Assembly (NCBI RefSeq): GCF_029395435.1
Contig: NZ_CP113915.1
Coordinates: forward strand, 1,302,001 to 1,366,000
Origin: Bifidobacterium sp. ESL0790
GTDB lineage: Bacteria > Actinomycetota > Actinomycetes > Actinomycetales > Bifidobacteriaceae
DNA length: 64,000 bases
Direction of reading: 5' to 3'
The notes beneath the pieces are model-generated. The model searched no databases. It saw only the letters and a list, made by a program, of their open reading frames with translations, and was not told where the DNA came from. Made by a program: the position numbers and the translations under genes. Positions 24,195-27,168 of the stretch are shown in pieces. Within the stretch, counting starts at the first letter, position 1, and each line of letters starts with the position of its first letter.

Positions 24195-24824
24195 CTATTT
24201 GTTGGACACGCGAACCTGCCGGCCCGAGGCGAACTTGTCGATCGCGCCCGTCCTCGCGATGGCGATATAGAGGTACCACATCAGCAGGCCCGCCACCAGG
24301 CCGCCGGAGATGAGCGTGGCGACGAGGTTCCAGACGCCGTACGCGCCCGTGAGTTGGAAGCCCTGCAAGTGCGTGAGGAACGTATAGCCCCAGCAGCCCA
24401 CGGCCGAGAGAGCACCGGAAAGCGTCAACGTCACCACGTTCCAGATTCTATACATGACCACGAGGAAAACGATTTCGGCGCACAACCCCTGCACCAGCGC
24501 CATGAGGAATGTTTCTGCGCCGCCCCACTGGTTGCCGAGCAGAGCCTCGAGCACACCGGCCACCACCTCAGCGTACGTGGCCGCGCCCGGTTTGCGCACG
24601 ATGACCGCGGCGAGCGGGCCGGCGAAGAGCCAGAAGCCATTCATCAGGCCGCCGAGGCCGGGAACCAGAGCGTCAAGCGGCGAGCCGATGGGGCCGTAGA
24701 GCAGCGCGGCCACCCAGTAGATCAGCGCGCTGGCCACGCCGATGACAGACGCGACGGCGATGTCGACGACGCGCCATTTGAGATTCGGCTTGGCGGGTTT
24801 GACTATGGTATTCGAATTTGACAT
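24195..24824 (-). CDS. ykoE: ECF transporter substrate-binding component for thiamine/HMP (YkoE family)
   Basis: The 209-residue protein starts MSNSNTIVKPAKPNLKWRVVDIAVASVIGVASALIYWVAALLYGPIG. About five membrane segments follow, with LVPGLGGLMNGFWLFAGPLAAVIVRKPGAATYAEVVAGVLEALLGNQWG, a stretch typical of YkoE proteins. It is the membrane subunit that captures thiamine or hydroxymethylpyrimidine and docks on the fused ATPase/permease encoded next (68 bp gap). A TPP riboswitch precedes it. The ATG at 24824 has a GAAAGG ribosome site that can pair with the riboswitch flank. Confidence 0.9.
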   Translation of the reverse strand: MSNSNTIVKPAKPNLKWRVVDIAVASVIGVASALIYWVAALLYGPIGSPLDALVPGLGGLMNGFWLFAGPLAAVIVRKPGAATYAEVVAGVLEALLGNQWGGAETFLMALVQGLCAEIVFLVVMYRIWNVVTLTLSGALSAVGCWGYTFLTHLQGFQLTGAYGVWNLVATLISGGLVAGLLMWYLYIAIARTGAIDKFASGRQVRVSNK

Positions 24825-24873
24825 GATCTGTGCCTTTCGTACGTGCGCACCGCTTTTCGGCGCGCATACAAGG

Positions 24874-24972
24874 CACGGGAAGAGACGTCCGTTCGCCGGC
24901 ATTGTCCGGACTCACGTTCATTCGGTCGAGGAAACCCTCATCTCAGCCAGCCATTAACGACCAGCCCCCGTG
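24874..24972 (-). promoter_or_regulatory. TPP riboswitch
   Basis: On the minus strand the leader contains CTGAGATGAGG, then GAACGTGA and CCGGACAATGCCGGCG, the conserved pyrimidine and pyrophosphate sensor elements of the thiamine-pyrophosphate aptamer. The closing stem is CACGGG (24967-24972) with CCCGTG (24874-24879). Just downstream GTGCCTT (24870-24876) can pair with AAGGCAC of the ykoE ribosome site (24830-24836), a likely translational switch. Confidence 0.88.
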
Positions 24973-25026
24973 TCAATTCGTCATCCTAGAGCGTGGCCAG
25001 GGCAAACTGTCTTACGCAGGGTGGTC

Positions 25027-25115
25027 GTGTGGGGTGGGGATGTCCCATGTTCGGGACGCTCCTTGGCCGCTCGGCCATGTCTTACGCCCGAACATGGGAC
25101 ATCCCCACCCCACAC
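25027..25115. repeat. 89-nt hairpin element, copy 1
   Basis: A perfect 29-bp stem (25027-25055 with 25087-25115) encloses a 31-nt loop that itself holds the 6-bp palindrome TGGCCG-CT-CGGCCA. The inner nine pairs (ATGTTCGGG) and the whole loop recur, inverted, in the element at 25498-25586. The outer 20 pairs differ. Shared flank: AGGGT-n-GTC before and T-n-GTG after. Confidence 0.9.
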
Positions 25116-25497
25116 TCGTGCCTCAGGAATCCGATTCAAGGAGCGGCCACGGAGGTGACTCACAAGCGAATAGCTGCCGCAGGCACACGGTCACTTACCG
25201 GTTAGCCGCCAAGTGATAAGGGCAAACATCTCTCGGAACAGTGCAAATCTGCATCCTGGGCCGAGCAACATCAAGAAGCTATATCAAAAGCAGCAAAGAC
25301 AAACATCCTCGTCACCAATCAGCATTTACCCACAGAATCAATTAAGAAAGCATCGTCCAAAAACACCAGCCGAAAGGCCACAGTTTCAGTCGCTGCCGCA
25401 GGCCAATGGCGTAGACTCGGCGCGCCAACAGTAAGAGACCTAAAGCCTGCGGCAGCATCCGCTTTTTTAATTACACGGCGCATAATCATTATCACTA
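25116..25497 (+). ncRNA. Possible small RNA or spacer between the two hairpins, with terminator
   Basis: No protein gene is evident. GCTGCCGCAGGC occurs at 25173-25184 and again at 25392-25403, and its complement lies at 25445-25456, followed by six T (25463-25468). The 3' arm can therefore pair with either upstream copy. The near pair makes a terminator with a 41-nt loop that contains a small TGGCG/CGCCA stem. The far pair would close a structure of about 284 nt. An expressed RNA on the plus strand is plausible but unproved. Confidence 0.4.
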
Positions 25498-25586
25498 GTG
25501 GCTGTGCGGGATATGCGATGTTCGGGCGTAAGACATGGCCGAGCGGCCAAGGAGCGTCCCGAACATCGCATATCCCGCGCAGTCAC
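25498..25586. repeat. 89-nt hairpin element, copy 2 (inverted)
   Basis: A 29-bp stem (25498-25526 with 25558-25586; 27 Watson-Crick pairs and two G-U pairs on the plus strand) encloses a 31-nt loop that is the exact reverse complement of the loop in copy 1. The inner nine pairs are conserved and the outer 20 differ from copy 1 on both arms in step. It lies 17 bp beyond the stop of the M20 peptidase gene and could end that transcript. Confidence 0.9.
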
Positions 25587-25603
25587 GACTACCCTATTTG
25601 CGT

Positions 25604-26971
25604 TCAGTGCCCCAGTTTGTCGAGGATGAGTGCCTCGGTGATCACATTGTTTTTGAGGCTGGTGAGATCGATCGATTCGTTGGGGCTGTGGGCGTTGCCC
25701 TTAGGGTCTTCGGGTCCGGTGACAAGGACCTGGGCCGCAGGGAAGATCCTCTGCAGCTCGGGGATGAACGGGATCGATCCGCCTTCGCCCTTGTTGATCG
25801 GCTCAACGCCGAACGCCTCACGCATGGATTCCTCCGCGTCCTTGGTGGCCTCGGCGTCGGGGTCCATGCTCCATCCCATGCCCTCGTCGAGCGTCGAAAC
25901 AGTCACCTCGGCTCCAAACGGCGCATGGGCCAGCAGGAAGTCGGTGACGGCCTTGGCGGCGTCGGCCGGGCGCTGGTTGGGCGCGGTGCGGATGGAGAGG
26001 CGGAAGCGGGTCTCGTTGGCGATGACGTTGAAGGATCCCTCGACCGGATGCGCGTCGAAGCCGATGACGGAGACGCTCGGCTTGGTCCACAAGCGCGAGG
26101 CCAGCGAACCGGTGCCGGCAAAGCGGTAAGAGTCGACCACGGAGGAATCAGCGCGCACGCTCGCCTCGTCAAGGTCACGCTGCAGGCCGCCGACCGGGTC
26201 TCCCCCTTCGAGCCCATCAATCACCAGCGAGCCGTCCTTGTCGTACATCGAGGCGATAAGCATGGCCGAAAGCGTGTTCGTGTCGAGAATCGGACCGCCG
26301 AACTGGCCGGAATGCACCGGATGCTCCAGCGCCTTCACCGTCACGTCCAAATCGGTGTTGCCACGCAGGCTGGTGGTCAGGCTCGGAATCTCGGCGCTCC
26401 AGTTGCCCGAGTCGGCCACGATGATAACGTCCGAGGCGAACTCGTCCTGATGCGCCTCGATGAAGGGGATGAAGCTCGGCGATCCCATCTCCTCCTCGCC
26501 TTCGATGAAGACCTTAATATTGACCTTGAGCTCGTCACCCAGCGCGTGCAGCGCCCCGGAATGGATGGCAATGCCGCCGCCGTCGTCGGTCGCGCCGCGC
26601 CCGTACAGGCGTCCGTCAACCTCGGTGGCCACGAACGGATCGGTGTCCCACGCGGAGGCGTCGGGCACGGGCTGGACGTCGTGGTGCGCGTAAAGCAGCA
26701 CAGTAGGAGCGTCGGGGTCGACGATCTTGGAGCCGACCACCTCGAAGGCGCCCGGGGTGCCGTCCGGATTGGTGGATTGCACCACCTTGGCGTCCACACC
26801 GCGCGCCTTCAGCTCGTCGGCCACGAATTGCGCGGAACGACGCATGTGCTCGCCGGTGATGCCCTGCGCCGAAACCGATTTCAGCGCGACCTTCTTGCTC
26901 AGCAGGTCGACGATGCGCGCGAAATCGCCGTCCACGCGCCCCCTGATCTCCTCGACTCTCGTTCCAGCCAT
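25604..26971 (-). CDS. M20-family dipeptidase
   Basis: The 455-residue protein starts MAGTRVEEIRGRVDGDF after an AAAGGAG site (26971); longer frames upstream lack one. VLLYAHHDVQPVP near residue 90, GRLYGRGATDDGGGIA near residue 120 with the bridging Asp, and VFIEGEEEMGSPSF near residue 150 are the metal-binding and catalytic sets of M20 peptidases. VTGPEDPKGNAHSPNESIDL near the C-terminus carries the last zinc-binding His. It probably cleaves dipeptides in the cytoplasm. It stands alone and convergent with nothing. A long hairpin lies directly downstream. Confidence 0.93.
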   Translation of the reverse strand: MAGTRVEEIRGRVDGDFARIVDLLSKKVALKSVSAQGITGEHMRRSAQFVADELKARGVDAKVVQSTNPDGTPGAFEVVGSKIVDPDAPTVLLYAHHDVQPVPDASAWDTDPFVATEVDGRLYGRGATDDGGGIAIHSGALHALGDELKVNIKVFIEGEEEMGSPSFIPFIEAHQDEFASDVIIVADSGNWSAEIPSLTTSLRGNTDLDVTVKALEHPVHSGQFGGPILDTNTLSAMLIASMYDKDGSLVIDGLEGGDPVGGLQRDLDEASVRADSSVVDSYRFAGTGSLASRLWTKPSVSVIGFDAHPVEGSFNVIANETRFRLSIRTAPNQRPADAAKAVTDFLLAHAPFGAEVTVSTLDEGMGWSMDPDAEATKDAEESMREAFGVEPINKGEGGSIPFIPELQRIFPAAQVLVTGPEDPKGNAHSPNESIDLTSLKNNVITEALILDKLGH

Positions 26972-27168
26972 GTGAAGCTCCTTTATATATGTGTTTGTCT
27001 TCGTCGTTATCAACATACCAAAATACCATTGGCTTCTCCGTGAGCCCGGACGTGGCGAACCAAGCGCCGGAACGGCCGACCACAATGGGCGCGAAAACGC
27101 CGGAAACCAGGCGCCCGCCAGCACGCCCAAAACCGCCAAGAGTCTAGCCTTCACCGTAATCTGCAAAC

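What the first reader, a model, noticed from the sequence alone, without database searches (positions are those of the whole stretch)
25027..25586. Inverted pair of 89-nt hairpins with conserved loop and covarying outer stems
Each element is 29 nt + 31 nt + 29 nt. The 31-nt loops are exact reverse complements, and the nine innermost pairs are the same. The outer 20 pairs differ between copies, yet both arms of each copy have changed together so that pairing is kept (two G-U pairs in copy 2). Flanks AGGGT-n-GTC and T-n-GTG are also shared. Two copies under selection for structure, or held perfect by cruciform-based repair, would look like this. Neither a plain terminator nor a simple transposon end explains a conserved loop with a covarying stem. 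It could be a mobile hairpin element, a recombination or protein-binding site, or ends of a structured RNA locus.
Basis: partly seen in the sequence, partly recalled or inferred. Interest (0 to 1): 0.85.

Follow-up and report, generated by a model that had tools for sequence, protein, structure and literature searches.

The report
Bifidobacterium hairpin repeats at gene ends
The two hairpins belong to a previously unlisted family of roughly 100-letter, RNA-like hairpins scattered just behind genes in most Bifidobacterium species, where their paired arms keep changing together and where they seem to stand in for ordinary gene-end (terminator) signals.

Summary
The two hairpins (25027-25115, 25498-25586) belong to a dispersed structured repeat: 24 copies in this genome, up to about 61 in a relative, 71 of 112 Bifidobacterium species, and none in a sample of 93 other Actinomycetales genera. 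Across 77 copies, 29 of 36 pairs show compensatory changes and 97.6% of pair cells stay paired. The loop is nearly invariant. All copies are intergenic, none of 79 clusters lies between divergent genes, and gene-proximal copies start a median 36 nt after a stop codon. Close pairs are always in the same inverted arrangement. At orthologous sites in 13 related species the hairpin alternates with short terminator-like hairpins; at one site these share the hairpin's outer stem and flanks. Loop types replace each other at one site; at another, at least five different outer stems occur, each self-complementary.

Best reading: a Bifidobacterium-specific, BIME/REP-like RNA hairpin that acts as a gene 3'-end element and disperses and converts among sites. 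The RAYT transposase of true REPs is absent in all 15 carrier genomes tested, no Rfam family matches, and no description was found in the papers searched. The dispersal enzyme, the working strand and the 3'-end role are not shown experimentally.

The parts
25020..25122 (-). Hairpin copy 1 (type-1 loop); RNA strand inferred from wobble bias is the - strand
   Evidence: Covariance-model hit, 102.4 bits (G000:C1:1327020-1327122); fold -79.8 kcal/mol, z -10.8
25027..25055 (.). Copy 1, left arm of the stem
   Evidence: Inverted repeat I3, 100% complementary to 25087-25115
25056..25086 (.). Copy 1, conserved 31-nt loop with inner GGCC-GCTC-GGCC hairpin
   Evidence: near-invariant columns in 77 copies
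25087..25115 (.). Copy 1, right arm of the stem
25491..25593 (+). Hairpin copy 2 (type-1 loop), inverted partner, next to the stop codon of the M20 peptidase gene
   Evidence: Covariance-model hit, 97.9 bits (G000:C1:1327491-1327593); + strand folds 10 kcal/mol better than - strand (-72.5 vs -62.1)
25498..25526 (.). Copy 2, left arm
   Evidence: Inverted repeat I4
25527..25557 (.). Copy 2, 31-nt loop, exact reverse complement of the copy-1 loop
25558..25586 (.). Copy 2, right arm
25604..27016 (-). Upstream gene ('gene 1'), M20 family peptidase; its stop codon lies 17 nt from the stem of copy 2
   Evidence: Gene call; Pfam PF01546 E 9e-31
24195..24824 (-). Downstream gene ('gene 2'), cobalt/thiamine-type ECF transporter permease
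   Evidence: Pfam PF09819 E 1.7e-35
24870..24981 (-). TPP-riboswitch-like leader of gene 2; in outgroups the M20 stop lies directly before it with no hairpin between
   Evidence: Rfam RF00059, 47.1 bits, E 1e-7, below the gathering score; outgroup sequences L118 and L119

Best explanation
The pair is one site of a Bifidobacterium-specific dispersed repeat of about 100 nt: a 32-bp stem with a bulged base and a conserved internal loop capped by a GGCC hairpin, found singly or as inverted pairs. Proposed working, inferred: the hairpin forms in RNA just behind the stop codon of the upstream gene. There it sets the mRNA 3' end, as a pause or roadblock that ends transcription without a T-tract and/or as a barrier to 3' exonucleases. 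The inverted partner gives the same block on the other strand. The stem is kept by compensatory change, so its sequence drifts freely. The loop is conserved because something binds it (host factor, RNase, or the unknown dispersal machinery). Copies disperse, exchange loops by conversion, and can reduce to, or replace, plain terminators at the same place. Shown: family, structure, covariation, 3'-end location, inverted pairing, presence/absence and alternation with terminator-like hairpins at orthologous sites. Inferred: transcription-end function, what binds the loop, how copies move.
For: Family and structure. Covariation: 29 of 36 pairs, 731 double-changed cells against 175 shuffled, score 0.745 against 0.07-0.14 for slid versions. 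Location: no coding overlap and 0 of 79 clusters between divergent genes, although 44 of 305 background intergenic regions of at least 100 bp are divergent; 83% of gene-proximal copies lie within 60 nt of a stop against 29% expected for uniform placement. Alternation: at S1-S3, ten element-free orthologues carry a short hairpin right behind the stop, and element-bearing ones show no other terminator within 110 nt by a simple scan. At S2 the terminators ATAGAACCCACGGAT and the elements GTAGAACCC(C)GG(A/G)GATAT share outer stem and flanks. Insertion or loss: outgroups lack the unit at the window site. B. breve transcripts often end at GC-rich stem-loops that are not classed as rho-independent terminators (PMC5746004).
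Against: No RNA data. Neither orientation carries a T-tract. Wobble pairs are biased to G-U on the strand antisense to the upstream gene (67 against 6 in the inner stem; 25 against 13 in the outer stem, p 0.07), which is the wrong strand for selection acting only on the upstream gene's own 3' UTR. My T-run terminator finder scored only 4 of the ten replacing hairpins at S1-S3 (L154, L156, L157, L175); the rest were judged by eye. REP-like elements could accumulate at gene ends merely because insertion there is harmless.
Confidence: 0.5

Rival explanations
1. Purely selfish miniature mobile element (REPIN/MITE-like) moved as folded single-stranded DNA by an unidentified enzyme. The stem is kept because the folded strand is the transposition substrate; the 3'-end location reflects tolerance, not function.
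For: Dispersed, different sites in different clades, inverted pairs always in one arrangement (7 of 7 in this genome, 14 of 14 in G073); the strand-specific wobble bias fits a single active strand; empty or element-free orthologous sites.
Against: No Y1 (IS200/RAYT) transposase in the window's genome or 14 other carriers. No target duplication or autonomous copy found. Tolerance does not by itself explain the tight 36-nt spacing or shared stems with terminators at S2.
Confidence: 0.25
2. A structured regulatory RNA or RNA-processing site acting on the strand reading outward from the pair (antisense to the upstream gene, sense to the downstream gene), for example an RNase III or protein-bound leader.
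For: G-U enriched over A-C on that strand for copies in both gene orientations (A-C 46:G-T 9 and 29:0 in core orientation); copy 2 folds 10 kcal/mol better on that strand; conserved, structured loop.
Against: At the window site the M20 gene runs opposite to that strand. Many copies are single and sit behind a gene rather than in front of one. The bias is concentrated in one conserved sub-stem and is not significant in the outer stem. No promoter evidence.
Confidence: 0.15
3. A DNA-level cruciform or protein-binding palindrome (gyrase, nucleoid or recombination protein) kept perfect by template-switch palindrome correction rather than by selection on RNA.
For: Perfect long palindromes with wholesale different stems at one orthologous site (S2: GTGTGGGGCTGCCG, GTAGAACCCCGG, GTGAGCCCCTCGG, GTATTGCCCTCA).
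Against: Correction is strand-symmetric, yet wobbles are strand-biased; it does not explain the conserved loop or the exclusion from divergent regions.
Confidence: 0.08
4. A one-off local inverted duplication of a terminator.
For: The window alone shows two similar inverted copies.
Against: 24 copies in the genome and 71 species.
Confidence: 0.01

Closest known systems
REP / BIME (bacterial interspersed mosaic elements) and REPINs of E. coli and Pseudomonas
   Same: Dispersed intergenic palindromes, often as inverted doublets of two sub-types, near stop codons; complementary arm mutations have been reported for REPs; roles in Rho-dependent termination and translation are on record (PMC2817692, PMC12306157, PMC3116915).
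   Different: 102-nt model with a 32-bp stem and a conserved, structured, exchangeable loop, against 20-40-bp REPs; no GTAG or CGTC tag in most copies; no RAYT transposase; confined to Bifidobacterium in the sample searched.
Intrinsic (rho-independent) terminators
   Same: Position behind the stop codon; at S2 the same outer stem and flanks as terminator-like hairpins in sister species.
   Different: Longer stem, large conserved loop, no T-tract, multi-copy family.
Other RNA-folding repeats (Neisseria Correia/NEMIS, pneumococcal BOX/RUP; recalled)
   Same: Small non-coding, transcribable, dispersed, hairpin-forming repeats.
   Different: In those the terminal repeats are largely fixed in sequence (recalled, not tested); here the stem is free to vary and the loop is fixed.
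Integron attC sites (recalled)
   Same: Long hairpins at gene ends with one functional strand and a variable paired part.
   Different: The conserved part here is the loop, not the outer core sites; the ends do not fit RYYYAAC/GTTRRRY by eye; no cassette array seen.

Membership tests
REP/REPIN/BIME | Dispersed intergenic palindromes, frequently inverted doublets | tested here: met
   24 own copies, 7 inverted pairs, all intergenic; 14 of 14 pairs inverted in G073
REP/REPIN/BIME | Associated RAYT (Y1 transposase, PF01797) | tested here: not met
   0 of 15 carrier genomes, controls positive
REP/REPIN/BIME | GTAG or CGTC tag at one end | tested here: not met
   CGTC in 9 of 77 and GTAG/CTAC in 13 of 77 copies at the ends
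REP/REPIN/BIME | Palindrome of 20-40 bp | tested here: not met
   102-position model
Intrinsic terminator | GC-rich hairpin followed by a T-tract | tested here: not met
   The hairpin is not followed by a T-tract in either orientation in the copies read
Intrinsic terminator | Located just behind the stop codon of a gene | tested here: met
   Median 36 nt
Intrinsic terminator | Causes transcription to end | not testable with these tools
   No RNA data available
MITE of an insertion sequence | Terminal inverted repeats of a parent IS and target site duplication | tested here: inconclusive
   Outer flanks of pairs repeat (AGTTCCAGCGGTGACCG in one clade, TGACGT in another), but no parent IS or duplication was identified by eye
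Known Rfam RNA family | Match to a curated covariance model | tested here: not met
   Only low-scoring microRNA matches, far below gathering scores, for short and long forms
Integron attC | Integrase and RYYYAAC/GTTRRRY core sites | not tested
   Ends inspected by eye only

The most novel reading that the evidence does not exclude
A mobile hairpin core cassette that exchanges with the loops of gene-end hairpins: the conserved core enters, swaps within, or drops out of terminator stems, so that terminators and a selfish structured RNA/ssDNA element are interconvertible alleles, mobilised by an unknown non-RAYT machinery acting on one strand.
Probability: 0.2. Interest if true: 0.82.

Novelty: new variant of a known kind. 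Interest (0 to 1): 0.6.

Why it matters
Bifidobacteria are major gut commensals of humans and bees, and in B. breve only about half of mapped transcription ends are rho-independent terminators; many of the others sit at GC-rich stem-loops without a known consensus (PMC5746004). A genus-wide hairpin family at gene ends, with strong covariation, is a concrete candidate for part of that gap. It also gives a natural record of a dispersed repeat and ordinary terminators occupying the same site, which makes the old question of whether REP-like repeats are selfish or functional directly testable in carriers that lack the usual REP transposase.

Tried and rejected
One-off duplication: rejected. RAYT/Y1 transposase as present mobiliser: none found. 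Reverse transcriptase: one RVT_1 gene in 4 of 8 carriers and none in the other 4, so not required. Autonomous copy: close pairs in G073 and the window's genome enclose no transposase-sized gap; the long S3 intergenic regions L147 and L155 hold a gene but no hairpin of this family. Rfam: nothing but microRNA-like noise, plus a TPP riboswitch nearby. Literature: no description of the family, and a search of paper texts for the loop sequence gave only unrelated papers. Exact insertion boundaries and target duplications: not resolvable from species-level comparisons. One regular-expression script timed out. My simple T-run terminator scan misses hairpins with loops over 8 nt or weak T-runs, so the alternation count rests partly on reading the sequences.

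Full report
Observation. Two 89-nt hairpins lie at 25027-25115 and 25498-25586, in opposite orientation, between an M20 peptidase gene and a TPP-riboswitch-led ECF transporter gene. Of the 20 outer pairs, 9 differ, each on both sides (two now G-U); 11 are the same. Folding is far better than shuffled sequence.

A family. The 621-bp query found about 20 hairpin places in the genome. A degenerate loop pattern found 77 loci in public genomes, all Bifidobacterium by title. Extracting 128 core matches and aligning 77 de-duplicated copies gave a consensus: a 32-bp stem with one bulge, an internal loop and a four-pair GGCC hairpin. A covariance model from it finds 24 distinct copies in the window's genome, about 61 in G073 by my count of the list, and matches in 71 of 112 Bifidobacterium genomes. 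In an even sample of 297 genomes of the order (94 genera) it matches only Bifidobacterium. Rfam has no such family.

Covariation. 29 of 36 pairs have compensatory changes, 97.6% of cells are paired, and the covariation score is 0.745 against 0.182 shuffled and 0.07-0.14 slid. At orthologous site S2 the stems GTGTGGGGCTGCCG, GTAGAACCCCGG, GTAGAACCCGGA, GTGAGCCCCTCGG and GTATTGCCCTCA, each self-complementary, occupy the same place in different species. The alignment includes related copies, and the control tool warns that shuffles do not preserve relatedness, so the numbers are not probabilities.

Strand. Written with the reverse-complement loop, stems carry G-U wobbles rather than A-C mismatches: 67:6 in the conserved inner stem, 25:13 in the outer stem (first seen). 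The bias is the same for copies in both orientations relative to genes. This points to RNA or single-stranded DNA of that strand, reading outward from a pair. It is strong only in the inner stem, where shared ancestry inflates the count.

Location. No copy cluster overlaps a called gene. None of 79 clusters with both neighbours called lies between divergent genes, while 44 of 305 background intergenic regions are divergent. In the orientation where the core strand follows the upstream gene, the stem starts a median 36 nt from the stop codon, 83% within 60 nt against 29% expected. Gene calls came from a simple codon-usage caller of mine, not from curated annotation. All close pairs (7 here, 14 in G073) have the same inverted arrangement, with the G-U strands pointing outward.

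Orthologous sites. Two outgroups (L118, L119) have the M20 stop directly before the riboswitch. At S1, S2 and S3, species without the element carry a short hairpin right behind the stop instead: L161, L162; L166, L169, L171, L175; L151, L154, L156, L157. At S4 the intergenic region is missing in G087 (L135) and the genes abut. At S4 the same outer stem holds a type-1 loop in G088 (L140) and another loop type in G089 (L144). At S2, terminators (ATAGAACCCACGGAT) and elements (GTAGAACCC(C)GG(A/G)GATAT) share stem and flanks. On a gene tree of the M20 locus the early-branching species G086, G088, own and G093 all have the S2 element, which together with the GGATA remnant in the terminators favours core loss over repeated core gain. 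This is a single-gene tree with several weak forks.

Mechanism. Best supported: a structured repeat that serves as, or replaces, the 3'-end signal of the upstream gene, the inverted partner giving the same on the other strand. In B. breve many transcripts end at GC-rich stem-loops not classed as rho-independent terminators (PMC5746004). REPs, the nearest analogue, facilitate Rho-dependent termination (PMC2817692) and can stall ribosomes when very close to a stop codon (PMC12306157). Selfish dispersal remains fully compatible; the enzyme is unknown. RAYT transposases are absent from 15 carriers tested and reverse transcriptases from half of 8.

Filing. It works like a BIME/REP and sits like a terminator, but fails defining tests of both: tag motif, size and RAYT for REPs; T-tract for terminators. 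It is reported as a new variant of dispersed palindromic repeat, not as a member of either.

Noticed in passing
L181 (G000:C1:563132), L177, L155:296-470, L009:1640-1750: A second structured repeat (CGTTAAGC + short covarying hairpin around AGTCCnnGGACT + GTAGGCGAAGTGAGCGCGA..TATCGAGCGCGAAGGC) occurs nested in loops of this hairpin family and also on its own, sometimes in tandem; in L155 it starts at the stop codon of the upstream gene.
   Followed up: partly
window 25173-25214 and 25415-25456: The spacer between the two window hairpins holds an inner palindrome (GCTGCCGCAGGC / GCCTGCGGCAGC); related palindromes (GCGAATAGCTGCCGCA..GCGGCAGCTATTCGC) are in the same spacer of relatives such as L106.
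   Followed up: no
window 24870-24981 (-): TPP riboswitch match (E 1e-7) below the Rfam gathering score, upstream of an ECF transporter permease gene.
   Followed up: no
L147:540-1500 and L155:690-1671: At the S3 intergenic site two species carry an inserted gene of about 320 aa, flanked by inverted repeats that differ between the two species: possible independent gains of a small cargo or defence-like gene at the same spot.
   Followed up: no
L135 (G087:C1:1208950-1209520): Clean loss of the whole S4 intergenic region, so that two genes separated by roughly 170-680 bp in related species abut or overlap.
   Followed up: no
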